Assembly (NCBI RefSeq): GCF_020166435.1
Contig: NZ_JAINZP010000006.1
Location: 124,001-188,000, forward strand
DNA from: Pectobacterium versatile
GTDB taxonomy: Bacteria > Pseudomonadota > Gammaproteobacteria > Enterobacterales > Enterobacteriaceae
Direction of reading: 5' to 3'
DNA length: 64,000 nucleotides
Below the pieces are notes generated by a model. It was not told the DNA's origin. It did no database searches and saw only the letters and a program-made list of their open reading frames with translations. Shown here piece after piece: positions 10,892-27,403 of this stretch. Every line of letters starts with the position of its first letter. Within the stretch, counting starts at the first letter, position 1. A program made the position numbers and the translations under genes.

Positions 10892-10965
10892 TCCCCGTCA
10901 TACTTGAAGTTGTAGGTTCTCTGAGTTTTCCTGCTTACCCTATATTCTAAATAATTTAAGTTACG
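10892..10965. repeat. Enterobacterial-type intergenic repeat
   Basis: The left end CCCCGTCATACTTGAAGTTG and right end TATTCTAAATAATTTAAGTT resemble the paired ends of a dispersed intergenic repeat I remember from Pectobacterium, Serratia and Yersinia chromosomes. It lies exactly at the junction between the hcp cassette and the acrD remnant. No second copy was seen in this window, so the call rests on memory. Confidence 0.4.
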
Positions 10966-11073
10966 CGATGGCGACCAGCAGCGGTGCAGGCTCAGCCAGT
11001 CAGCATGCTGTGGGGACGGGCGTGATCGGTGGCATGCTAGCCGCCGCTTTCCTCTGAAGGAGAAGGCATGATG
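10966..11073 (+). pseudogene. Decayed duplicate of the acrD 3' end
   Basis: Bases 10966-11046 match acrD 8765-8845 with only a few mismatches (start CGATGGCGACCAGCAGCGG). The match resumes at GCCGCCGCTTTCC (acrD from about 8890) and runs through the SD-like AAGGAGAAGGCATGATGG to 11073. About 45 bases between the blocks are missing, and the C-terminal frame is broken. Together with intact acrD it brackets the hcp cassette as a direct repeat of acrD ends, implying that the cassette came in with, or recombined into, an acrD end. Confidence 0.85.
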
Positions 11074-13845: not shown

Positions 13846-13903
13846 GTCGTCTGTGCCGTCTATTTATGGTGAAATTCATCAAACTGTAAAAAAAGGTAAC
13901 TAC

Positions 13904-13940
13904 GTTATGTCCTGCTAAATGACGCAACCAAGGACATAAC
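13904..13940 (+). promoter_or_regulatory. Perfect inverted repeat covering the SD of the phosphatase operon
   Basis: GTTATGTCCT (13904-13913) is matched exactly by AGGACATAAC (13931-13940), with a 17-base spacer. The right arm contains the SD (AAGGA, 13930-13934) and ends one base before the ATG at 13942. In mRNA the arms could pair and hide the SD; in DNA they could be an operator. It does not match the Zur or PhoB consensus I know. Confidence 0.6.
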
Positions 13941-13941
13941 A

Positions 13942-15687
13942 ATGAAAGCTCGCTGGTTACTGCCTTTACTGATTTCTGCTGCTTTACCGGGGATGGTGCA
14001 GGCTCAGGCTATTTATCCCATTGACCGTGCCACCATGCTGGCAGGCGGAAAATTCGATTTTAAAGTCGAGTTTGATGAAGTACTTAAGCCAGAAGATATC
14101 CGTATTCTGATCAACGGCAAGGATTACCAGCAGGTGCTGGGCAAAACGGCCTCGTTTGTTGAGCGTGAAGATGGCGGCAACGCGTCCACGATCTGGCTGC
14201 GCGACGTGAACTTGCCGGAAGCAGGCAAGTATGTGGTAGAGGCGGAAGCCAAAGGTAAAAAGACGCAGGTGAACTGGGAGGTTTATTCGGCGTCTGGTAC
14301 GCGTAAAGCCAAAAACGTGATTCTGTTTATCGGCGATGGCCTGTCCGTTGCGCACCGTACTGGCGCGCGCATCCTGTCCAAAGGGGTGACGGAAGGGAAA
14401 GCGGACGGTCGTCTGGCGATTGATGACCTGCAATATATGGCGTTTGCCGGTACGTCCAGTACCGACTCTATCGCGGCCGACAGCGCCAACACCATGAGCG
14501 CCTACATGACCGGTCACAAATCCGGTGTGAACGCACTGGGTGTGTACGTCAGCCGTAGCAAAAATTCACTGGAACACCCGAAGCAGGAAACGCTGGGTGA
14601 GCTGCTGACCCGTTCTACCAAGATGTCTGTCGGCGTAGTCAGCGATGCTGAACTTCAGGACGCCACGCCAGCGGCAGTTGTCTCTCATACCCGCCGTCGC
14701 GCGGATAAAGCCGAAATCGTCGAGATGTTCTACAACGTGCAGCCTACCGTCATGCTGGGCGGCGGTTCTGCTTACTTCCTGCCGAAAAGCACGCCGGGCT
14801 CGAAGCGTAAAGACGAAACCAACTACGTTGAGAAATTCCAGCAGGCGGGTTATTCACTGGTTACTGACGCAGATTCACTGAAGAAAAACGCGGCACAGGC
14901 TACCAAGCTGCTGGGGCTGTTCCACACCGGCAACATGGATGGCGTGATAGATCGTCGTTTCCTGAAAAACGATGTCGCCAAGAAATTCCCGAACCAGCCT
15001 GACCTGACGGACATGACGCAGGCGGCGCTGGATGTGCTGTCCAAAAACCAAGACGGCTTCTTCCTGATGGTGGAATCTGCACTGATCGACAAAGCGTCTC
15101 ACCCGTTGGATTGGGAACGCGCTTTCACTAACACCATCATGCTGGATCAGTCTGTCGCGATCGCCAAGAAATTCGCCGAGAAAAACCCGGATACGATGAT
15201 TATCGTGACGGGCGACCATACGCATGGTCTGTCTATCATCGGAACCATTGATGACAACAAGCCTGGCACCGAGATGCGTGAGAAGGTCGGCGTGTATGAA
15301 GATGCGGGCTACCCGAACTATAAGGATGCCAACAAAGACGGCTATCCGGATGATCTGAACGTTTCTAAACGTCTGGCCGTGTTCTTCAACAACTTCCCTG
15401 ACTATTACGAGACGTTCCGTCCGAAGCTGGATGGCCAGTTCGTTCCTGCTATCAAGAACGAAAAAGATGAATACGTTGCCAACAAAGCCTACGAGAAAGT
15501 GCAGGGTGCGGTATTCCGCGAAGGGATTCTGCCACGTTCTTCCGATACGGGCGTTCATGCCGTTGACGACATGGTGATTCAGGCGAGCGGCCCAGGCGCA
15601 GAGCGTATCCGTGGTTACATGGAAAACACCGATCTGTTCCGGGTGATTGTTGATGCACTGGCGGTGAAACCGCAGGACAAAAAGTAA
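13942..15687 (+). CDS. Periplasmic alkaline-phosphatase-superfamily enzyme
   Basis: A protein of 581 residues with a clear signal peptide (MKARWLLPLLISAALPGMVQA). An N-terminal beta-rich segment (to about residue 118) precedes an alkaline phosphatase domain: metal motif FIGDGLS with Asp132, nucleophile region AADSANTMSAYMTG with Ser181 aligned to Ser102 of PhoA, GFFLMVESALID, TGDHTHG, and a late DTGVHAVDD. The superfamily hydrolyses phosphomonoesters with two zinc ions and a magnesium. It is the first gene of a four-gene operon with a small exported protein and an ABC transporter, unlike classical phoA. The substrate is unknown. Confidence 0.85.
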   Translation: MKARWLLPLLISAALPGMVQAQAIYPIDRATMLAGGKFDFKVEFDEVLKPEDIRILINGKDYQQVLGKTASFVEREDGGNASTIWLRDVNLPEAGKYVVEAEAKGKKTQVNWEVYSASGTRKAKNVILFIGDGLSVAHRTGARILSKGVTEGKADGRLAIDDLQYMAFAGTSSTDSIAADSANTMSAYMTGHKSGVNALGVYVSRSKNSLEHPKQETLGELLTRSTKMSVGVVSDAELQDATPAAVVSHTRRRADKAEIVEMFYNVQPTVMLGGGSAYFLPKSTPGSKRKDETNYVEKFQQAGYSLVTDADSLKKNAAQATKLLGLFHTGNMDGVIDRRFLKNDVAKKFPNQPDLTDMTQAALDVLSKNQDGFFLMVESALIDKASHPLDWERAFTNTIMLDQSVAIAKKFAEKNPDTMIIVTGDHTHGLSIIGTIDDNKPGTEMREKVGVYEDAGYPNYKDANKDGYPDDLNVSKRLAVFFNNFPDYYETFRPKLDGQFVPAIKNEKDEYVANKAYEKVQGAVFREGILPRSSDTGVHAVDDMVIQASGPGAERIRGYMENTDLFRVIVDALAVKPQDKK

Positions 15688-15699
15688 TCCTACGACGCT

Positions 15700-16179
15700 A
15701 TGAATAATGCGAAATGCAGCAAAGCGGGGGCAACCCCGCTTTTATTCTCTTGGTTGCGTGCGGTGCTGGTGCTCCTCCTCCTTGGTGGCATCACCCCAGT
15801 AAACGCCGCGCAGTCTGAACTCTCCTTCGATAAGCTGTACGCCTCTTACGGCGTGCTGGGTCTGGAATTCTCCAATGACGTCAAAGCGCTCTCCGGTAAA
15901 CGGGTCAAGATGCGCGGCTTTATGGCACCGCCGCTCAAAGCGGAGTCACAATTCTTTGTATTAACCAAAATGCCGATGGCGCTGTGCCCCTTCTGTTCGT
16001 CTGATGCGGACTGGCCTGAAGATATCCTCGTCGTTTACCTTGCCAAACGTCAGACCTTCGTACAGAACAACACCATGATTGAGGTGGAAGGTGTGCTGGA
16101 ACACGGATCGTGGACCGACCCTGAAACGGGTTTTGTCAGCCTGCTGCGACTGCGTGAAGCCACGTTCGATACCCTTTAG
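15700..16179 (+). CDS. Small exported protein of the phosphatase-ABC operon (DUF3299-like)
   Basis: A protein of 159 residues with an N-terminal hydrophobic export signal (LFSWLRAVLVLLLLGGITPV, cut near NAA). The mature part resembles an OB-like periplasmic domain: VKALSGKRVKMRGFMAPPL, then LTKMPMALCPFCSSDADWPED with a CPFC pair, and IEVEGVLEHG. I remember this as DUF3299-like, of unknown function. It starts 12 bases after the phosphatase gene and ends 8 before the ATPase gene, so they are co-transcribed. The Cys pair may bind metal or be redox-active (inference). Confidence 0.75.
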   Translation: MNNAKCSKAGATPLLFSWLRAVLVLLLLGGITPVNAAQSELSFDKLYASYGVLGLEFSNDVKALSGKRVKMRGFMAPPLKAESQFFVLTKMPMALCPFCSSDADWPEDILVVYLAKRQTFVQNNTMIEVEGVLEHGSWTDPETGFVSLLRLREATFDTL

Positions 16180-16187
16180 GAGCGCTG

Positions 16188-16880
16188 ATGGCTGAGTTAT
16201 TGATTCAACACCTGAGTGTGACCTTCCCCGATACGTCCGAGGCGGTGCTGGATATTCCCGCGCTGTCTATTCGTTCTGGCGAGCGAGTCGCGGTGATGGG
16301 GCCTTCTGGCTCCGGTAAGACCACGCTGGTGAATGCCATCACCGGGATGGATCACAGCGGAACGGGCTGTGTGCAGTGGGAAAAGCAGGATATCTGGCAG
16401 ATGAACGAAGCGGAACGCGACCGCTGGCGGGCACAACACATCGGGTTGGTGATGCAGGATTTCCATCTTTTCCCCGGCCTGAGTGCGATAGAGAACGTCT
16501 TACTGCCCGCGCAGTTTCACCACTGGCGGATCCCCGCGGCGCTCAGGCAACGGGCGGCAGATCTGCTGGCGCAGGTCGGGCTGGATACCGCGAACCGTCC
16601 GATTGAAGTGCTATCACGCGGCGAGAAGCAGCGGGTGGCCGTCGCGCGAGCCTTGCTCAGCAAACCAGACATCATCGTCGCCGATGAGCCGACGGCCAGT
16701 CTGGACGCGCAGAGCGGTGAGCAGATTGCCGATCTGCTGGTGACGCTGGCGCGTGATAGCCGGGCGACGCTTATCGCCATTACGCACGATGCGCGTCTGG
16801 CATCGCAGATGTCGCGCCGTATTCAACTGGAAAAAGGACGCCTTGTGGCGGACACGCCGTATCAGGAGGATCGCGCATGA
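16188..16880 (+). CDS. ABC transporter ATP-binding protein, LolD/MacB type
   Basis: A protein of 230 residues. Walker A GPSGSGKTTLVN, Q-loop LVMQDFHLFPGLSA, signature LSRGEKQRVAVARAL, Walker B IIVADEPTASLD and the H-loop ITHD are all intact. It belongs to the subfamily paired with FtsX-type permeases (LolCDE, MacB, YbbAP). It overlaps the permease gene by 4 bases (ATGA), implying coupled translation and a shared complex. Confidence 0.88.
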   Translation: MAELLIQHLSVTFPDTSEAVLDIPALSIRSGERVAVMGPSGSGKTTLVNAITGMDHSGTGCVQWEKQDIWQMNEAERDRWRAQHIGLVMQDFHLFPGLSAIENVLLPAQFHHWRIPAALRQRAADLLAQVGLDTANRPIEVLSRGEKQRVAVARALLSKPDIIVADEPTASLDAQSGEQIADLLVTLARDSRATLIAITHDARLASQMSRRIQLEKGRLVADTPYQEDRA

Positions 16881-18268
16881 TTCCTTGGCGTCTTATCTGG
16901 GTCGACTGGCGTCGGCTCTGGCCGGGAGTGCTGGTCGTGGTGTTGCTGATCGCGACGGCGACAGCGTTAAGTATTTCGGTGAGTTTGCAGGAAAGGGCGC
17001 TGCGCATGGGCAGCGCCAAAGCGGCTGACCGTTTCGATCTAGTGATCGGCGCGCCGGGGAGTGAAACCCAACTGGTGCTGTCGTCCGTGTTCCTACAACC
17101 GTCGGCGCTGACGCTGATTCCTGCGCAGGTGTTGACCGATCTGGAGAAGAACCCGCTGGTCGCCTGGGCGGCACCGGTCGCGTTTGGTGATTTCTATCAG
17201 GGGATGCCGATTGTCGGCACCACGCCGCCGCTGGTCACGGATAACGGTAAGCGACCACTTACCGCCGGACGTGTGTTCAACGACGGTTTTGAAGCCGTGG
17301 TGGGGGCGCAAACGGGGCTGACGGTTGGGAGTACATTTAGCCCAATTCATGGTCAGGTGGGTACGGAAGGGGCGCACGCGCACGATGACGTCACCTACAC
17401 CGTAGTCGGTGTTTTTCCTGCTGACGGCAGCGCGTGGGATAAAGCGATTCTGGTACCGGTGAACGCGGTGTGGCGAGTACACGGCATCCATCCACCGCAT
17501 GGTGCGGACGATGATCACGACCACAATGAGCATGAGGGAGAACATGATCATGAGGGTGAACATGGCGGCCATACGCATGATGAAACCGCGCATGCCGATG
17601 AGCATCACAACGAGTCGCATCCAGCGGAAGGTGCGGAAAGTGATGATCATCATGCTACTGTCGCTCAGCCAGTAACGGTTCCACACGATGACGAGTACGG
17701 CGAAGCAGAAGCCCACGGGCACGCGCATCAGGCTGGTTTGCCCGCGATTGTCGTTAAACCGAAAACGATCGCTGGCGCTTATCAACTGCGTTCGTTGTAT
17801 CGCAGCAACACGACGCTGGCGGTGTTTCCCAGCGAAGTGCTGGTGAAGCTTTACTCGATGCTGGGCGATATTCGTGAACTGCTGACTTATATCTCGCTGG
17901 GTACGCAGGGGTTAGTCGGTGTTGCGGTGGCGATGGTGGCGGTTATCCATCTGCGGCAGCGGCAGAAACAGATTGGCGCACTCCGTGCCTTTGGCGCGCC
18001 GCGCTACGGCATTTTCACGCTGATTTGGAGCGGGTTGATGTCGCTGGTGAGCGTCGGCGTGCTGCTGGGCGTCGGGCTGGGTTATCTTGCTGCCCGTGCG
18101 ATTGCGGTGGTCATGAGCGAGAAAAGCGGCTTCGTCCTGCCAGTGACGCTGGAATGGGAGGATATCCACTTCGTCCTGCTCCTGTTGCTGGTTGCCGCCG
18201 TGGTTCTCACCATCCCCGCGATGCTGTCTTACCGCCAATCTCCTGCTACGGCGCTGCGTGGCGAGTAA
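16877..18268 (+). CDS. FtsX-type ABC permease with a histidine-rich periplasmic loop
   Basis: A protein of 463 residues. TM1 is at about 14-34, followed by a MacB-like periplasmic domain (to about 330), then three TMs in the C-terminal 130 residues (LVGVAVAMVAVIHL, IWSGLMSLVSVGVLLGVGLGY, FVLLLLLVAAVVLTIP) and the end YRQSPATALRGE. Residues 202-284 are an acidic His-rich insert with 21 His in 83 residues, expected in the periplasm. Such loops bind zinc, copper or nickel. With the metal-dependent phosphatase gene in the same operon, a role in metal handling is plausible but inferred. Alternatives are lipoprotein or peptide release by a mechanotransmission mechanism. Confidence 0.85.
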   Translation: MIPWRLIWVDWRRLWPGVLVVVLLIATATALSISVSLQERALRMGSAKAADRFDLVIGAPGSETQLVLSSVFLQPSALTLIPAQVLTDLEKNPLVAWAAPVAFGDFYQGMPIVGTTPPLVTDNGKRPLTAGRVFNDGFEAVVGAQTGLTVGSTFSPIHGQVGTEGAHAHDDVTYTVVGVFPADGSAWDKAILVPVNAVWRVHGIHPPHGADDDHDHNEHEGEHDHEGEHGGHTHDETAHADEHHNESHPAEGAESDDHHATVAQPVTVPHDDEYGEAEAHGHAHQAGLPAIVVKPKTIAGAYQLRSLYRSNTTLAVFPSEVLVKLYSMLGDIRELLTYISLGTQGLVGVAVAMVAVIHLRQRQKQIGALRAFGAPRYGIFTLIWSGLMSLVSVGVLLGVGLGYLAARAIAVVMSEKSGFVLPVTLEWEDIHFVLLLLLVAAVVLTIPAMLSYRQSPATALRGE

Positions 18269-18536
18269 CGTACGGCGAAATGCGGCGGGCTAAATCGTTA
18301 AGCTAAGCCGTCTGGGTATCGGGCGTGTCGTTTCTGCGTCCGATGCTTTCGTCCTTGCCTTATTACTGAGCGCCCGCTGGTTTCCTTTATGGAGGAATAG
18401 AAAGAGTCTGAGACGCGTGGCGTATCTCGAGGTATTTGGTCTAGCCTCTTTGAAAGATAAACGCTAACGTTTGGTAAAAATTCGAATTGCGTAGGGTATA
18501 AGTGAAATTTTGGTCTGCAATACTTACTCAGTTATA
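18269..18536. other. Spacer after the ABC operon
   Basis: I see no credible gene, terminator or repeat here. Base composition falls from the GC-rich operon into the AT-rich car region. Confidence 0.5.
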
Positions 18537-18921
18537 TAAAGTTGGATTTGCTGCTTCGGTATATCAATTGCACTAGCCACATTTTCAAAAAGACGAATCT
18601 GTCGCGCCGAACCTTGAACTCATACGCTATTGGTTGTGGAGTACGCCACAATTACATACTGAGTATTCGTGTCAATGGTCATGCGGGCGTCTGCAGTTGC
18701 TACGCGATTACCTCCGTTTCCACATAGACTGGTGGCCCAGAAACATAAAATGCCCCTGTCTGCCGATTAAAACGTAATGAAAAATGTGTCTCATAAAGGC
18801 CTGAAGACTTAAAATAAGCAACCAGTGATCGAAGGAGGTATAGGCTAAATAACTTCGCACATTGATACTTCACTTCTCTCATCGCGCGAGGCCAGTGCTG
18901 ACGGGGTGCAACTTCCTGCAA
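18537..18921 (-). pseudogene. Possible degraded gene, minus strand
   Basis: On the minus strand two adjoining frames have protein-like composition. One (18921 to 18700) ends in YETHFSLRFNRQTGAFYVSG. The other (about 18735 to 18537, with one internal stop) contains GNGGNRVATADARMTIDTN and then IRLFENVASAIDIPKQQIQ. A frameshift near 18725 would join them. I recognise neither, and the assignment as one broken gene is tentative; it could be chance open sequence. Confidence 0.3.
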
Positions 18922-19289
18922 GTATAGCGTTATTATGCAAAATCATTTAGGGGGAACTCGATTTATCACAAAAAATATTGTAAATAAATTTGAATAATTC
19001 CAGGGAATTTATTTTTTTAAAATAAATCAAAAATAAATCAAGAAAAATTCAAGGAGTGTAATTGAATTAAAAAAAATCCCAATCTATAGTCCTCCGGTTG
19101 TAGCTTAAGATTTAGTGAATGCTGATACAGCACCGATTTTTCATTGATTATCAATGAAGTAGTGGTGATTGAGCTTAAAAATCATAAAGCGGTTCATTAT
19201 GTAAGTGCCAAAATGAAAGGAAAATGAAGATACACCACGAAAATATAATTAATTTATCGTGTAAATTATTGACTCTTTTAATAAGAAGA
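18922..19289. other. AT-rich region upstream of the carA fragment and carR
   Basis: This stretch is very AT-rich with no open frame of note. An imperfect dyad CACGA...TCGTG spans about 19237-19260. The transcription start for carR probably lies here or in the following carA-derived segment, but I cannot place a promoter with confidence. Confidence 0.5.
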
Positions 19290-19452
19290 GAGTATCACTA
19301 TGAGTGATAATTTTCGCATTATTTACAATGGCTGTGACGCCTGTTTGAATAATGTTCAATACTACTTGGGTGGAAAATTCGAGGCATTATGTAATGGTTA
19401 TCTTTTTATTTAAAAGAATAGCCATTATCAGAAATGTTTGATCGATAAGATA
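19290..19452 (+). pseudogene. Truncated duplicate of the carA 5' end
   Basis: An ATG at 19300 opens 37 codons of which 26 match the start of CarA (both contain YNGCDA and EALCNGYLF), then a TAA at 19411. DNA similarity continues past the stop (CATTATCAGAAATG against GATTATCAGAAATG) to about 19452, and begins before the ATG (AGAGTATCACT against AGAGTATTACT). The copy ends right at the carR SD. It may be only a fossil, or a short translated leader in front of carR. Confidence 0.88.
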
Positions 19453-19462
19453 AGAGGAGAAT

Positions 19463-20155
19463 ATGGATAACGAAATCTATTCATTTATAAGAAAGAGGCT
19501 AAAGGAGGTTGGAGATGTATGGTTTTCTTATTCCATGGTGAGAAAATTTTCTGCCGATCAACCTTATATTATATCTAATTATCCGGAGTCGTGGATTAAT
19601 GAGTATCGAAGAAAAAAAATGTTTCTGGACGACCCCGTGATTGTTGCTTCATTGTCGCGCATTGCACCATTTTCTTGGGATGATAATGATCTTGTTACGT
19701 TAAGATCTAAGAATCCGGATGTCTTTATTTCTTCCGTACAGCACGATATAAACTCAGGCTATACTTTTGTCTTGCACGATTGTGATAATAATATGGCGAC
19801 CCTGAGTATCGCTAATCATTTGGAAGAGGCAAGTTTTGAAAAATGTATGAAGAATCATGAAAATAATTTGCAGATGCTGCTAATGAACGTGCATGAAAAA
19901 GTTATGGCCTACCAGCGTGCTATCAAAGATCAATCCAAGTCACCTGATAATCCAAAAAATGCTTTACTCTCCCCGCGAGAAACTGAAGTACTTTTCTTGG
20001 TTAGTAGTGGACGAACTTACAAAGAAATCTCCCGTATATTAGGTATTAGTGAAGTCACCGTTAAATTCCATATTAACAATTCAGTCCGAAAGTTGGGCGT
20101 TATTAATTCCCGCCATGCTATAGCTAAAGCTCTTGAGTTAAACCTTTTTCGGTAA
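19463..20155 (+). CDS. carR: CarR, LuxR-type quorum-sensing activator (C-terminally truncated)
   Basis: A protein of 230 residues that activates car transcription with N-3-oxohexanoyl-homoserine lactone. The ligand-domain residues of the family are present: Trp44, Tyr48, Asp57, Pro58, Trp72, Gly99. The C-terminal GerE-type HTH spans about 167-226 (LLSPRETEVLFLVSSGRTYK...). An SD (AGAGGAGA) precedes the ATG at 19463. The stop codon lies inside the end of an IS1-family remnant: after Leu-Phe the frame runs into the element (CGG TAA). Joining the sequence beyond the element restores a tail HSLCESMMIKHVGVH and a length of 244, the length I remember for published CarR. The HTH is intact, so activity may survive. 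Confidence 0.93.
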   Translation: MDNEIYSFIRKRLKEVGDVWFSYSMVRKFSADQPYIISNYPESWINEYRRKKMFLDDPVIVASLSRIAPFSWDDNDLVTLRSKNPDVFISSVQHDINSGYTFVLHDCDNNMATLSIANHLEEASFEKCMKNHENNLQMLLMNVHEKVMAYQRAIKDQSKSPDNPKNALLSPRETEVLFLVSSGRTYKEISRILGISEVTVKFHINNSVRKLGVINSRHAIAKALELNLFR

Positions 20156-20566
20156 CACCTCCAATTAGTTGAGGCTGATGCATAATGTTCGTTTTTGAGG
20201 CTTCTCTCATGGCCAGCATTGATGTTCATTGCCCCGTTTTCAGTCTGCTTTGGTTTACCGCTGTGACCGGCCATGGCAGATTTCGCTGCTGTAGCTGCCA
20301 CCGAGTGTTTCTGCTTACAAAACCTGTAAGCCAGGTGTCAAAGAGCGGATAACTCAAAGAGTTTTAAACGATGTACGGTACCGCAAGGACGCTGAAAATT
20401 GTGCATTAACACCATCATTCGCAATTTAAAAAACTCGTGCCACGATGAATAGCGACCTTATCTGGTCGCTGACGCTTATCTGCCTTTCACATTCGATTGC
20501 GTTGCATGAAAAAGTCATTGGAGCCTTCATTAAAAAATATATTCTCTACATATTGGAATAATTACC
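20151..20566 (+). mobile_element. IS1-family remnant inserted in the 3' end of carR
   Basis: The left end GGTAACACCTCCAATTA and right end TATTGGAATAATTACC are IS1-type inverted repeats. Inside is a decayed insA (20209-20452). It starts MASIDVHCPV, keeps FRCCSCHRVFLLT and, after frameshifts, CKPGVKERITQ and INTIIRNLKNSCHDE before a stop. A C-terminal insB fragment SIALHEKVIGAF follows, ending at 20561. Most of insB is missing (416 bp against about 770 for IS1). Flanks CCTTTTTC (20143-20150) and TATTTTTC (20567-20574) look like an imperfect 8-bp target duplication. It cannot transpose on its own. Confidence 0.9.
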
Positions 20567-20574
20567 TATTTTTC

Positions 20575-20621
20575 ATTCTCTCTGTGAATCCATGATGATA
20601 AAACACGTAGGTGTCCACTAA
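20575..20621 (+). pseudogene. Displaced 3' tail of carR
   Basis: Beyond the IS1 remnant and its target duplication the sequence reads, in the carR frame, HSLCESMMIKHVGVH and then TAA at 20619-20621 (the first base of the His codon is 20574). Joined after the Leu-Phe codons before the element it gives a 244-residue CarR. This is now untranslated. Confidence 0.8.
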
Positions 20622-20650
20622 TGTTAATTTTTTTATCATATCTTCGGTAT

Positions 20651-20697
20651 GTGATAGTTACCTATCTAAAAGGATAGTATCTCCCTATCTAAAGGAA
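20651..20697 (+). promoter_or_regulatory. GATAG/CTATC repeat cluster upstream of carA
   Basis: Alternating GATAG and CTATC blocks: GATAG (20653-20657), CTATC (20662-20666), GATAG (20673-20677), CTATC (20685-20689). CCTATCTAAAAGGA at 20661 recurs almost exactly at 20684, 23 bases on, about two helical turns. It lies about 120-160 bases upstream of carA and is a candidate site for CarR. The spacer from 20698 to 20815 is AT-rich and must hold the carA promoter. Confidence 0.45.
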
Positions 20698-20815
20698 ATT
20701 GAACAGCCTAATCTTTTATGTGGTTAATATTTTTATTTATCTTGCTTATTGTATGTGATGACTTTTAAAAATAATTTCTTCCCATGTATTTATTAGGCTA
20801 AAGAGTATTACTATT

Positions 20816-22327
20816 ATGAGTAATAATTTCTGCATTGTTTATAATGGCTGTGACGCAGATATAAATAATATTCAACACTACTTCGATGGAAAAGGCGAAG
20901 CATTATGTAATGGTTATCTTTTTTTTGAACAAAATAGCGATTATCAGAAATGTGAGATAGAAAAAGGATCGGCCTATCTGCTCGGTACGTTGTACAACCG
21001 GGCGTTTCTGGCAGGGCTGGCTGGGATGTGGGAAGGTGGGGCTTATCTAGCCAATGATGCCGAGCTGTTGGCGTTACTGTTTACCCGTTTGGGAGAAAAC
21101 GCACTCGTACTGGCTGAGGGGAACTTCTGCTTTTTTATTGACGAACCGGGAGGTGGGCTTACGGTGATCACCGAGTCTCGCGGTTTCTCACCCATTCATG
21201 TCGTGCAGGCGAAGAAAACGTGGATTACTAACAGCCTGAAGCTGGTTACTGCGGCAGAAGGCGAAGATGCATTGTTGTTCGAAAGTGAAGCATTGGTGTG
21301 CCAGTCACTGATGCGGGCGGATAATTACACGCCAGTGAAAAATGCACAGCGCCTGAAACCGGGTGCGATGCATGTGTTTACACATGATAGCGAAGGTTAT
21401 TCTTTCGTCGAGAGTCGCACACTCACCACACCTGCTGGCAATAAACTATTAGCTTTGCCGCGCGAACCGCTGTTGACGTTAATTGAACGTTACCTGACTG
21501 CACCACTTGGGGATATGGCGCAGCGCTTTGATACGGTCGGTATTCCACTTTCTGGCGGGCTGGATTCAAGTCTGGTTACAGCACTCGCTAGCCGCCATTT
21601 CAAACAGTTGAATACGTATTCGATTGGTACGGAATTCAGTAATGAGTTTGAGTTTTCTCAGCAGGTTGCCGAGGTGCTCGGCACGCATCATCAGGTGCGA
21701 ATTCTTTCCGAAGCTGATGTCATTAACGGCATTATCGAGTCCATCTATTACAACGAAATATTTGATGGTTTATCTGCTGAAATCCAGTCGGGATTGTTCA
21801 ATGTGTATCGTCAGGCTGAGGGACAGGTATCTTGCATGCTTACTGGCTACGGTTCCGATTTGCTATTTGGCGGCATACTGAAACCGGGAGCGCATTATGA
21901 TAATCCTAATCAACTCCTTGCTGAGCAAGTATACCGCACGCGTTGGACGGGGGAATTCTCTACTCAAGGGGCTTCCCACTACGGCATCGATGTTCGTCAC
22001 CCGTTTTGGACCAGCGCTTTAATTACGCTGTGCCATTCTCTAAACCCCGCATACAAGATTTACGATAACGAGGTCAAAAACATCCTGCGTGAATATGCCG
22101 ATTCGCTCCAATTGCTGCCTAAAGACATCGTCTGGCGCAAGAAAATCGGTATTCACGAAGGTTCTTCTGTTAATCAGGCATTCGCTAATGTACTCGGCTC
22201 AAGGGTTGATAATTACCAGACCAAAAGCTGCTTTACCTACCGTGTCTATCAAGCTTTCCTACGCGGACGACTCTCTATTAATGATGTCACCTCATATCAG
22301 CTTAAAAAATTGATCAATAAGGATTAA
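20816..22327 (+). CDS. carA: CarA, carbapenam synthetase
   Basis: A protein of 503 residues, homologous to class B asparagine synthetases and beta-lactam synthetase. It uses ATP to adenylate carboxymethylproline and close the beta-lactam ring, giving (3S,5S)-carbapenam-3-carboxylate. The N-terminal domain lacks the catalytic Cys of glutaminases (MSNNFC...), as expected. The pyrophosphate loop is SGGLDS at 246-251. The catalytic residues Tyr345, Glu380 and Lys443 sit exactly at published CarA positions. It is first in the car operon; carB follows after 2 bases. Confidence 0.97.
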
Positions 22328-22329
22328 TT

Positions 22330-23917
<1,588 letters not shown>

Positions 23918-23927
23918 CCTTCATGAT

Positions 23928-23949
23928 TCTGGCACGGAAACGTGCCGGA
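23928..23949 (+). promoter_or_regulatory. GAAA-tetraloop hairpin between carC and carD
   Basis: The stem TCTGGCACG (23928-23936) with CGTGCCGGA (23941-23949), 9 bp with one G-U pair, encloses a GAAA tetraloop. It sits in the 54-base gap between carC and carD, the only sizeable gap in the operon. No T-tract follows, so it more likely protects the upstream carABC message or tunes read-through than terminates fully. Confidence 0.55.
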
Positions 23950-23971
23950 TTGCCACTAATCTGGAACCATC

Positions 23972-25102
23972 ATGCCTAACGATCTTTACGCTACCTACAA
24001 TCGTTACACGTCAGGGACATTGTTTTTTAAATACTGTGCGACAGCGGTCCTGACCCATAAGCTGACACGCAGACTGTCACTTTTTATACTAAAGAAATGC
24101 CTCACACGGCCGCAGGGGTGGCTTTTCTCTCTAATTAACAGCATCTACTTTGGTGGGGAAACATTGGAGGAAGCTCAGAGCACGGCAACTCTTTTGGCAC
24201 GCGCAGGAATTGCCAGCGTGCTGGACTATGCCGTGGAAGGAGAAAATGATGAGGTACAGTTCGATAATGCGATGGAGAATACGCTACGCCTTATCGAGAT
24301 GTCTCAACAAACGGATAGCCTGCCTTTTGTCGTGATCAAACCATCCTCATTGGGCAGTGTTGCCGTATATACCCAACAAAGCGAAGGATTAGCGCTGGAT
24401 AACGCATCGGCTAGTGCTTGGTTGCGTATTGTGGCGCGTTTCTCACACCTATTCGATTATGCCCGTACTCATGGAGTGAGAGTGATGGTGGACGCTGAAC
24501 AAACGGCGATTCAGCCAGCGGTAGATTGTCTGATCCTGAAAATGATGTGCAAGTTTAACTGTGATAGCGCGGTAATAACGCTGACGCTGCAATTCTATTT
24601 GAAAGATCAGCAGCGTTTCCTCGCTGAATACTATCAGCAGGCCTGTCAGGATGACTTTATGCTCGGAGTGAAAGTTGTGCGTGGTGCTTATCTGGAAGAA
24701 GAGAAAAAAGTGAACGGCGGTGAACGCTGTTTTGCGACCAAACAGGAAACGGATCGTAGTTATAACGCTGCGGTGGACTATATTGCACAACGTTTGGATC
24801 GAATCGTCCCGTTTTTTGCTACGCATAACGAAGAAAGCCTCGCAATAATTATGAAGAGCAAGCCGTTGCGTGCCGGACGTATCTGGGTAGGGCAGCTTTA
24901 CGGACTGGGCGATCATATTACTTATTCGTTATTGCAAACCGGCCTTCGTGTATGCAAATACCTGCCTTATGGCCCCCTCGACAAATCGTTGCCGTATTTA
25001 CTTCGACGGATTGAAGAGAACGCGGTTGCTACAGCAACATTCAAAAAAGAAAATAAACTCTTGCGGAAGGAGTTACTGCGCCGTCTGGTGGGCGGAATAT
25101 AA
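23972..25102 (+). CDS. carD: CarD, proline dehydrogenase-like enzyme
   Basis: A protein of 376 residues related to FAD-dependent proline dehydrogenase. It is believed to oxidise proline to pyrroline-5-carboxylate, the CarB substrate, with electrons passed to CarE. Family features visible: VMVDAEQTAIQPAVD, QFYLKD, KVVRGAYLEEE (the flavin and substrate region), ATHNEES, and the C-terminal VCKYLPYGPLDKSLPYLLRR that holds the substrate-binding arginines. It is not strictly needed for production in reported work but raises yield. The stop overlaps the carE ATG by one base. Confidence 0.93.
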   Translation: MPNDLYATYNRYTSGTLFFKYCATAVLTHKLTRRLSLFILKKCLTRPQGWLFSLINSIYFGGETLEEAQSTATLLARAGIASVLDYAVEGENDEVQFDNAMENTLRLIEMSQQTDSLPFVVIKPSSLGSVAVYTQQSEGLALDNASASAWLRIVARFSHLFDYARTHGVRVMVDAEQTAIQPAVDCLILKMMCKFNCDSAVITLTLQFYLKDQQRFLAEYYQQACQDDFMLGVKVVRGAYLEEEKKVNGGERCFATKQETDRSYNAAVDYIAQRLDRIVPFFATHNEESLAIIMKSKPLRAGRIWVGQLYGLGDHITYSLLQTGLRVCKYLPYGPLDKSLPYLLRRIEENAVATATFKKENKLLRKELLRRLVGGI

Positions 25103-25374
25103 TGTCAAAATTTAACTGTCATATTCGTAATACCACCATCGATTTTACGGTGTTGGCGAATGAAAATGTGCTGAGTGCTGCTCATGAAGCTGATATCAAG
25201 CTGCCTTATCGCTGTGCTTCTGGCTATTGTGGCGTGTGCAAAATGCGTCTAACGTCTGGTCAAGTCAACATGAATCATTCTGGCGGGATTTCACGCCAGG
25301 AGATTGCCGATGGCTATATTCTGCCATGTTGCTCTGTGCCGCTTTCTCACCTCGAAATTGAGCCTATCTCATGA
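25102..25374 (+). CDS. carE: CarE, 2Fe-2S ferredoxin
   Basis: A plant-type ferredoxin of 90 residues. Cluster ligands are Cys38, Cys43 and Cys46 in CASGYCGVCKM, and Cys76 or Cys77 in YILPCCSVP. Likely role: electron acceptor for CarD or donor to an oxidative step of carbapenem synthesis. It starts in the stop codon of carD and overlaps carF by 4 bases (ATGA). Confidence 0.93.
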   Translation: MSKFNCHIRNTTIDFTVLANENVLSAAHEADIKLPYRCASGYCGVCKMRLTSGQVNMNHSGGISRQEIADGYILPCCSVPLSHLEIEPIS

Positions 25375-26240
25375 TGTTGAAGACGTACTTTATCGTTGGG
25401 CTATGCTGCATTTTCCCCTTTTTATCCGCGCAGGGAGAGATCCTAGCCTCCGATGAGGTTGTTGTCAGAGGCGGCAATTTCTATGTGGGCTCCGTATTTG
25501 GTCCAGAAGACTATGTCGCCAATGCCAATACCTCCATCGCGCCTTTTGCCATGACGAAAACGGAAATTACCTATCAGCAGTATCATGCGCTGCAAAAATG
25601 GGCGGAAGCACACGGTTATCAGTTAAACGGTGGCTGTAATGGTGCCACCTTTGAGGATTGCTTACCACCAGAACAAGATGATGGGAAGCACCCAGTTACC
25701 AATGTTTCATGGTGGGACGCGGTGATTTTTGCCAATGCACTCAGTGAACGGCAGCGGCTGCAACCCTATTACCTCACGATCGACGGTAAGACGCTAAAAG
25801 CTGTGCCGGAGGACGATAGCATCAATCTCATACGCGAGAATCAGCAGGCTTCGGGTTATCGTTTGCCGACGCTTGCCGAGTGGCAAATGGCAGCCAGAGG
25901 CGGGGAGAAGGGATTGGCAGATGCCACGTATGGTTATCGTTATGCGGGCAGCGAAAAGCCGGGTAGTGTGGCGAACTTTCCCTCTTGCTCATCGTCGTTC
26001 GGCACGATGTCCGTGGCGTCGAAGCGCCCTAATTCACTCGGCCTTTACGACATGAGCGGCAATGTATCTGAGTGGTTAAATGAGTCCTACGTAGTGGAAG
26101 GCGGAAAAACCATGTACTACTTTTGCGGTGGAAGCTATATGGAACGGACGCATAGCCTGGCAAGCTGCGATCTGCATACGCCTGGTTTTTTTATGTCTGA
26201 CATCGGCTTTCGATTGGTAAGGGCACTCGATGATAAATAA
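25371..26240 (+). CDS. carF: CarF, carbapenem self-resistance protein
   Basis: A protein of 289 residues with a signal peptide (MLKTYFIVGLCCIFPFLSAQG), so periplasmic. The mature part is a formylglycine-generating-enzyme-like (SUMF1) fold: GGNFYVGS, VTNVSWWDAVIFANALSER, GYRLPTLAEWQMAARGG, LYDMSGNVSEW, GFRLVRA. The catalytic Cys arrangement of true FGEs is not evident, so it is probably non-enzymatic. With CarG it gives the producer resistance to its carbapenem by a mechanism other than beta-lactamase action. It overlaps carE by 4 and carG by 11 bases. Confidence 0.92.
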   Translation: MMLKTYFIVGLCCIFPFLSAQGEILASDEVVVRGGNFYVGSVFGPEDYVANANTSIAPFAMTKTEITYQQYHALQKWAEAHGYQLNGGCNGATFEDCLPPEQDDGKHPVTNVSWWDAVIFANALSERQRLQPYYLTIDGKTLKAVPEDDSINLIRENQQASGYRLPTLAEWQMAARGGEKGLADATYGYRYAGSEKPGSVANFPSCSSSFGTMSVASKRPNSLGLYDMSGNVSEWLNESYVVEGGKTMYYFCGGSYMERTHSLASCDLHTPGFFMSDIGFRLVRALDDK

Positions 26241-26763
26241 ATTCATTGGATGGTTGGCGCTTTATGCCATTAGCAGCACTGCCTCTGCACTATCTTCAGT
26301 CGTGTTGAAAGATGGAATTAACCGGTTGGATCTCAATCAGGGCGGCGGGAAAGACTATGTCGTTGTCGCCCAGTTTGACAATAATACCTCGCATCCCAAT
26401 CTCGGGATGACCTTCTTTGTACGACGCCCAGACGGCGGATACAGTATTATGCCAGTTGCCAACAACAATACGTTTACCTGGTTTGATTACCGGCTATCCG
26501 CGGCGGCGGATTTTCTGGTGCAGGATAATCGACTGTTCCTATCTGGAAAGCGTTACTTCCTAGTGACGGCAAGAAAGCAGGGAGAAAACGTCTTTGAGCC
26601 CACAAAAGTCATGTTAACGATTTACGACTTTAAAACATCGCTGGATGATCCAGGAGTGCCGCTGTACGAATGGTCTGAGCGGAAGAGAGTAGTGACGCAG
26701 AATACTTACCAGTCGGTTGATTGCGCTTACAAGGAAGTGAATGAGGCGGTGCTGACAAAATGA
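26230..26763 (+). CDS. carG: CarG, carbapenem self-resistance protein
   Basis: A protein of 177 residues with an N-terminal signal peptide (MINKFIGWLALYAISSTASA), so periplasmic. The mature protein is beta-rich with no recognised enzyme motif. It is the second immunity factor with CarF in Pectobacterium and Serratia car clusters. Immunity genes in this cluster are reported to be expressed also without CarR. The gene overlaps carF (11 bases) and carH (4 bases, ATGA). Confidence 0.92.
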   Translation: MINKFIGWLALYAISSTASALSSVVLKDGINRLDLNQGGGKDYVVVAQFDNNTSHPNLGMTFFVRRPDGGYSIMPVANNNTFTWFDYRLSAAADFLVQDNRLFLSGKRYFLVTARKQGENVFEPTKVMLTIYDFKTSLDDPGVPLYEWSERKRVVTQNTYQSVDCAYKEVNEAVLTK

Positions 26764-27314
26764 AAACGTCCTTTTTGATCGTATGCGGGTTGTTATTATC
26801 CTTTGGTGTACTGGCACAGCTCAGCGAGCAGGATTACCAGCAACGGATGCAGGATTTTTTTGATGCAGAGCCGCCGCTATGTCTGGGAGAAAAGCAGTGG
26901 CCTGCATACAGCCCTAAAGATGATGCCCCTTGGAGTAGTAGCCGCCTACACGCGCTGGTGAAGGCTGGGCTGGCATACGCCACGTCTAAAGGAACCGATA
27001 CGGTATACCGTCTATCTCCCGTGGGTGAGAAGAGCTGGCGTCAGTATGGCGACCTGTGTTACGGCCGAATGCAGGTTAACAGCATTGAGAAAATCGATCG
27101 CGTAAATCAGGAACTGACGGTGGTGTACTTCACTTACCGCCTAACGCCATTGGAAAGTTGGGCGCATAATCGTTCGTTACGCTTTGCCTTTAGCGAACTG
27201 GATAATCTTGTTAGAGGAATGGAAACCACGCTCTATTCGGCCACGCTTCGTGAGACGCTGGGCGGAGCGGCCAAATTGCAAGATTACCCCGTGCCGGTAG
27301 AGCTGGATTACTGA
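26760..27314 (+). CDS. carH: CarH, exported protein of the car operon, unknown function
   Basis: A protein of 184 residues with a signal peptide (MKTSFLIVCGLLLSFGVLA). The mature part has two Cys (PPLCLGEKQW and YGDLCYGRMQV) that could form a disulfide. It is reported as not needed for synthesis or resistance; its role is unknown. It is the last gene before the strong hairpin at 27346. Confidence 0.88.
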   Translation: MKTSFLIVCGLLLSFGVLAQLSEQDYQQRMQDFFDAEPPLCLGEKQWPAYSPKDDAPWSSSRLHALVKAGLAYATSKGTDTVYRLSPVGEKSWRQYGDLCYGRMQVNSIEKIDRVNQELTVVYFTYRLTPLESWAHNRSLRFAFSELDNLVRGMETTLYSATLRETLGGAAKLQDYPVPVELDY

Positions 27315-27345
27315 TCAGATATATTACTGATACTACAGAAAGAAA

Positions 27346-27368
27346 CAGGGTGAACATCGTTCACCCTG
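27346..27368. terminator. Bidirectional terminator between carH and kduI
   Basis: The perfect 10-bp stem CAGGGTGAAC/GTTCACCCTG has a 3-base loop (27356-27358). On the minus strand it is followed by TTTCTTTCT, a good terminator for kduI; on the plus strand the T content is low, but it closes the car operon by position. Confidence 0.8.
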
Positions 27369-27403
27369 CTGCATCTTACGTTATCGGTATAACGCCAGAG
27401 GGA

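What the first reader, a model, noticed from the sequence alone, without database searches (positions are those of the whole stretch)
20140..20621. IS1-family remnant truncates CarR and supplies its stop codon; the lost 15-residue tail is still readable
carR reads ...Leu-Phe-Arg-stop, with the last Arg and TAA made from the element end (GGTAACACC...). Removing bases 20151-20566 and one copy of the imperfect 8-bp flank (CCTTTTTC against TATTTTTC) restores ...NLF-HSLCESMMIKHVGVH-stop, giving 244 residues. The element has both IS1-type ends but has lost most of insB. So the quorum-sensing activator of carbapenem synthesis is a shortened allele, and an element also separates carR from carA. Whether the strain still makes carbapenem on cue is open. 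The HTH is intact; the tail effect is unknown.
Basis: partly seen in the sequence, partly recalled or inferred. Interest (0 to 1): 0.8.

Follow-up and report, generated by a model that had tools for sequence, protein, structure and literature searches.

The report
Old IS1 scar shortened carbapenem regulator
A long-dead piece of a jumping gene cuts the last 15 amino acids from the switch protein of an antibiotic gene cluster in a soft-rot bacterium, and sequence decay suggests that the shortened switch has been kept in working order while its own upstream control DNA was also replaced.

Summary
Window 20151-20566 is an internally deleted IS1-family remnant in an imperfect 8-bp duplication; it supplies the stop of a 230-residue CarR. 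In 6 of 6 other car-positive Pectobacterium genomes CarR has 244-245 residues and no insert.

Most likely the cut is old and tolerated. First and second codon positions changed at 33/194 in the remnant (18/878 in full-length copies) and 6/26 in the stranded tail, but only 33/424 in the CarR body and 6/131 in its DNA-binding domain; CarR has no indel. The tail lies beyond the last HTH helix; LasR, RhlR, QscR and a genus-wide paralogue end within 1-5 residues of that point. carA-H are intact, and the best-conserved spacer block still adjoins carA.

Beyond the finding: (1) carR has lost its ancestral upstream region, replaced by mosaic DNA and a stray, drifted copy of the carA start. (2) The whole car island is a divergent allele (mostly 79-87% identical to P. 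carotovorum) in flanks mostly 95-99% identical.

Whether carbapenem is still made on cue is untested. The event type is ordinary; the replaced upstream region may matter more than the lost tail.

The parts
19463..20155 (+). carR, 230-residue LuxR-type regulator with Autoind_bind and GerE domains
   Evidence: ORF; Pfam PF03472 1e-25 and PF00196 3e-16; 81-83% identical to six Pectobacterium CarR
20151..20566 (+). IS1-family remnant, insA sense on +, about 324 bp internal deletion and small indels
20143..20150 (+). left copy of the 8-bp target duplication (also carR codons)
20567..20574 (+). right copy of the 8-bp target duplication
20574..20621 (+). stranded remains of the carR tail, no longer translated with carR
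   Evidence: codon register against relatives; 6/26 first and second positions changed
20657..20700 (+). best-conserved block of the carR-carA spacer, candidate carA promoter/CarR site (function inferred)
   Evidence: 34 of 40 columns invariant in all 7, median window 23
19289..19450 (+). drifted copy of the carA 5' end (short leader and about 46 codons, stop after 37) directly upstream of carR
   Evidence: 82% to own carA; shares 18 of 23 lineage-specific bases with own carA
18269..19288 (.). mosaic DNA between the permease gene and the carA copy: drifted pieces of a type III secretion secretin gene, a dispersed repeat, unknown AT-rich DNA; stands where relatives have their carR upstream region
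20816..22327 (+). carA, intact
22330..23082 (+). carB, intact
23096..23917 (+). carC, intact
23972..25102 (+). carD, intact
25102..25374 (+). carE, intact
25371..26240 (+). carF, intact
26230..26763 (+). carG, intact
26760..27314 (+). carH, intact

Best explanation
An IS1-family element inserted near the 3' end of carR long ago and decayed in place. It removed a 15-residue, probably disordered tail and supplied a new stop one codon after the last shared residue. The shortened CarR has been kept under purifying selection since, so it most likely still binds the AHL signal and activates carA-H from a site next to carA that the insert did not displace. In the same lineage carR also lost its ancestral upstream region, so its transcription must come from replacement DNA. 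The scarred car island differs from the car allele of P. carotovorum although the flanking chromosome is nearly the same, so it probably moved by homologous replacement. Shown: anatomy, relatives, decay pattern, island divergence. Inferred: function of the 230-residue form, the promoter, the transfer.
For: Decay clock: at sites invariant in the comparators, first and second codon positions changed at 33/194 in the remnant, 18/878 pooled over four full-length IS1 copies, 6/26 in the stranded tail, 33/424 in the carR body and 6/131 in its HTH. Had carR drifted at the remnant's excess rate, about 63 changes would be expected in the body (33 seen, P 5e-6) and about 20 in the HTH (6 seen, P 2e-4). 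By eye on the alignment the remnant has 7 small indels; at that rate carR would have 11.6, and it has none (P 1e-5). A second scar, the carA copy, shows fragment-specific drift of 13/81 at first and second positions (10/39 and 3/42; third 4/32). LasR, RhlR and QscR chains end 1-3 residues after the residue aligned with CarR 228, and a genus-wide paralogue 5 residues after residue 229 (14 of 14 translated). The P. carotovorum CarR tail 231-244 has pLDDT near 30; the window CarR HTH is mostly 84-91 with the same four helices. carA-H: no gap in 24 of 24 comparisons; dN/dS 0.02-0.15 for window pairs in the seven operon genes measured. An AHL synthase gene with an open frame lies elsewhere in the genome.
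Against: No phenotype or expression data. carR dN/dS with relatives is about twice that among relatives (0.105-0.126 against 0.050-0.059), so some relaxation, or a shift in the signal domain, is possible. The clock assumes that the remnant's drift followed insertion; three other short IS1 deletion derivatives in the genus show that such elements can arise and perhaps move already shortened. The tail count is small (26 sites). CviR and SdiA, also solved, run several residues past the window CarR end. No carR promoter was identified: 3 promoter-like sites where 8.8 are expected by chance. Both models rest on 7 sequences (mean pLDDT 66 and 70).
Confidence: 0.64

Rival explanations
1. The cluster is cryptic: the tail cut or the lost promoter disables CarR supply, and carA-H are intact only because the loss is recent or the immunity genes are still selected.
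For: Cryptic car clusters ascribed to defects in CarR or its production are on record in Pectobacterium (review PMC3376562, passages, citing Holden 1998, not read). The ancestral carR upstream element is gone. carR dN/dS is raised.
Against: A drifted insert, a drifted tail and a drifted carA copy beside an unbroken, more constrained carR. carA-E, not only carF-G, are intact, and those measured are constrained.
Confidence: 0.22
2. The element arrived already shortened or decayed, mobilised in trans, so its drift does not date the cut; the cut may be recent and its effect unknown.
For: The remnant cannot encode a transposase. Three other IS1 derivatives of about 405-415 bp occur in two other genus genomes, so short forms are recurrent.
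Against: Those three have other breakpoints, and only the window copy matches over 1-416 in 25 genomes. The 8-bp flanks already differ at 2 of 8 positions, and the stranded tail has drifted.
Confidence: 0.25
3. The 15-residue tail tunes CarR, and its loss changed signal dependence or stability and was adopted by selection.
For: The tail is well conserved in six Pectobacterium CarR.
Against: Unrelated tail sequence in Prodigiosinella CarR; absent in a genus-wide paralogue; predicted unordered.
Confidence: 0.1

Closest known systems
Cryptic carbapenem clusters of Erwinia/Pectobacterium (Holden et al. 1998, as cited in PMC3376562, passages seen; original not read)
   Same: car biosynthetic genes intact, lesions confined to carR and its surroundings
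   Different: Here carR is unbroken up to the HTH end and constrained; a defect is unproven; upstream region replaced and tail cut by a decayed insert
CarR of P. carotovorum DSM 30168, P. aroidearum L6, P. betavasculorum NCPPB 2795 and three unnamed Pectobacterium genomes
   Same: 81-83% identity over 229 residues; carR followed by carA in all six, by carA-H in the three checked
   Different: 244-245 residues, no IS1 insert, and a shared upstream region that the window lacks
IS1 family insertion sequences (insA/insB)
   Same: ends, insA and insB traces, 8-bp flank duplication
   Different: about 324 bp internal deletion, several frameshifts, not mobile on its own

Membership tests
IS1 family | IS1-type terminal sequences at both ends | tested here: met
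   aligned with ends of full-length copies
IS1 family | insA and insB coding content | tested here: inconclusive
   only pieces; Pfam hits below cut-off, but nucleotide match E 1e-44 to a full-length copy
IS1 family | short direct target duplication | tested here: met
   8 bp, 6 of 8 identical; each copy departs once from relatives at the two differing positions
IS1 family | active transposition with insA-insB frameshifting | not testable with these tools
   region deleted in the remnant
CarR (LuxR-type AHL activator) | autoinducer-binding plus GerE HTH domains | tested here: met
CarR (LuxR-type AHL activator) | gene next to and upstream of carA-H | tested here: met
CarR (LuxR-type AHL activator) | 15-residue C-terminal extension of Pectobacterium CarR (typical, not defining) | tested here: not met
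   absent here, present in 6 of 6 relatives; its sequence differs in Prodigiosinella CarR
CarR (LuxR-type AHL activator) | AHL-dependent activation of carA | not testable with these tools
   needs an experiment
Cryptic car cluster | car genes present without carbapenem production because of carR | not testable with these tools
   no phenotype; sequence evidence leans against

The most novel reading that the evidence does not exclude
This is a rewired car allele. It combines a promoter-swapped, tailless CarR with an intact carA site and was exchanged as a unit into a P. carotovorum-like chromosome, so carbapenem here answers to different upstream inputs (for example without those acting on the ancestral carR promoter) or is partly released from quorum control.
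Probability: 0.25. Interest if true: 0.55.

Novelty: new variant of a known kind. Interest (0 to 1): 0.4.

Why it matters
It is a natural experiment on which parts of a well-studied quorum-sensing activator can be lost, with drifting DNA beside the gene as a yardstick. It also shows that car islands in Pectobacterium differ in regulatory wiring, so finding carR-carA-H in a genome does not by itself predict when carbapenem is made.

Tried and rejected
Assembly artefact: not favoured, since the scar lies inside a 241-kb contig and no other copy matches it over its whole length; no reads were seen. The carA copy as remnant of a P. carotovorum-type car locus: rejected, it shares 18 of 23 lineage-specific bases with the window's own carA (three named relatives only). 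The carA copy bringing the carA operator to carR: not found; similarity begins 10-15 bp before the start codon. A shared miniature IS1 family: checked late. Three other derivatives of about 405-415 bp exist (G014:C31, and G002:C1 twice) but with other internal deletions; this raised the 'arrived already shortened' rival from 0.20 to 0.25 and lowered the best explanation from 0.68 to 0.64. An Rfam element in 18000-21000: none at gathering score. A close car allele on plasmids: none; best of 3 records is Pantoea at 54%. carA in 295 family genomes: 5 with a match at E 1e-60, none nearer than 73% outside the own genome (that sample did not report the six car-positive genus-mates, and at least two genus-mates in it had no match). 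A printed report of IS1 or another insert in carR: none noticed in five search listings (one search had zero papers; two searches listed only part of their hits). carF was left out of the dN/dS table. In one search my first reading of the right flank was one base out of register and showed stops; one search uses the relatives' register and drops one of six relatives (L043, one codon longer) from the tail count. The four full-length IS1 comparison copies are not all intact: insA is open in 4 of 4, insB in 2 of 4, which makes the contrast with the remnant conservative. ExpR2, for the paralogue, is a recalled label.

Full report
What is there. carR at 19463-20155 encodes 230 residues and stops inside the first bases of a 416-bp stretch, 20151-20566, flanked by CCTTTTTC and TATTTTTC. 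The stretch matches IS1-type copies in its own genome (9 matches including itself, best other 71% identity, E 1e-44) and in 14 of 25 genus genomes, own included. Aligned with full-length copies it has lost about 324 bp, including most of insB, and by eye carries seven small indels. Its protein pieces hit the IS1 Pfam models only weakly; pieces of a full-length copy from the same genome hit them strongly.

Relatives. Of 25 genus genomes, 7 including the window's own hold a CarR above 80% identity. In the six others CarR has 244 or 245 residues, carA follows, and no insert is present. The two positions at which the flank copies differ are T and C in all six; each window copy departs at one of them.

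Is the cut harmful? The P. carotovorum tail is predicted unordered (pLDDT near 30 for 231-244), past the last HTH helix at 216-225, which the window CarR keeps. Both models rest on seven sequences, with mean pLDDT 66 and 70. Solved RhlR, LasR and QscR chains end one to three residues after the residue aligned with CarR 228; CviR and SdiA run several residues longer. A LuxR paralogue found across the genus (ExpR2 by recall) ends five residues past the shared point in 14 of 14 translated. Prodigiosinella CarR, 60% identical, has a tail of the same length but unrelated sequence.

A yardstick at the locus. At sites invariant among the comparators, first and second codon positions differ at 33 of 194 in the remnant, against 18 of 878 pooled over four full-length copies. 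In the four copies insA is open in all and insB in two. Third positions in the insA part of the remnant are hit about equally (9 of 44), as expected of neutral drift. The stranded tail differs at 6 of 26, the carR body at 33 of 424 and the HTH at 6 of 131. Tail against body gives P 0.018, tail against HTH 0.005, remnant against body 7e-4. CarR has no indel. So the body stayed constrained while its neighbours drifted. This assumes that the decay followed the insertion; the differing flank copies and the drifted tail speak for that independently but with few sites. Against it, three other short IS1 derivatives of about 405-415 bp, with other breakpoints, occur in two other genus genomes, so an element could arrive already shortened. 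Also, carR dN/dS with relatives is 0.105-0.126, twice the 0.050-0.059 among the relatives.

The operon. carA to carH align without a gap to three relatives, 24 of 24 comparisons. dN/dS for window pairs lies between 0.02 and 0.15 in seven of the eight genes; carF was not measured. The carR-carA spacer keeps its best-conserved block, 20657-20700, on the carA side of the insert (34 of 40 columns invariant, median 23). Published work places CarR binding in this intergenic region (PMC3376562, passages); that this block is the site is my inference. An AHL synthase gene with an open frame lies elsewhere in the genome.

A second lesion. The 200 bp upstream of carR are 77-92% identical among the six relatives and have no match at E 0.01 in the window's 18269-19462. 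Part of that region is shared with Prodigiosinella (40-65 bp, 78-81%, E 5e-7 to 9e-10 against three relatives), but not with the window (best E 0.5), so the window state is probably the derived one. In its place stands a copy of the carA start (19289-19450, 82% to the own carA) behind mosaic DNA. The copy shares 18 of 23 lineage-specific bases with the own carA and has drifted at 13 of 81 first and second positions, a level close to the IS1 remnant. No convincing promoter was found (3 candidates over 18269-20830, 8.8 expected by chance). Predicted Fur sites in carR promoters are reported for other strains (PMC6813493, passages); inputs of that sort may be lost here.

A divergent island. Over 13862-18268 the window is mostly 95-99% identical to P. 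carotovorum (one 400-bp chunk at 90%), and right of about 27600 96-99%. Between them car genes are mostly 79-87% identical, with 91% at the end of carR and 76% in the spacer. dS in four flanking genes is 0.06-0.16, and 0.73-0.98 in eight car genes against the same strain. carR and the operon are of similar divergence, so the island appears to have moved as one. No nearer car allele turned up in the collections searched. Horizontal acquisition of carR is proposed for P. brasiliense 1692 (PMC6989131, passages).

Verdict. The event type is ordinary. The best reading is an old tolerated truncation in a functional, rewired and horizontally exchanged car allele. The chief alternatives are an insert that does not date the cut and a cryptic cluster, a condition on record in these bacteria.

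Noticed in passing
19289-19450: Drifted copy of the carA 5' end directly upstream of carR, where six relatives have a shared carR upstream region.
   Followed up: yes
18538-18848 and 19008-19092 (possibly to 19241): Drifted pieces related to a type III secretion secretin gene (open on contig C28 of the own genome) and to DNA upstream of its neighbouring InvF-like regulator gene; not joined.
   Followed up: partly
18845-18950: About 105-bp repeat found at many places in Pectobacterium genomes; no Rfam match.
   Followed up: no
18269-27400: Whole car island is a divergent allele inside flanks mostly 95-99% identical to P. carotovorum.
   Followed up: yes
L013 (G014:C31:26471-26880), L165 and L169 (G002:C1): Three further IS1 deletion derivatives of about 405-415 bp, each with its own internal deletion but of nearly the same length as the window's 416-bp remnant; chance or a preferred size is open.
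   Followed up: partly
10893-11061: Short stretch that matches more than one place near the car locus of P. carotovorum, probably a small dispersed repeat.
   Followed up: no
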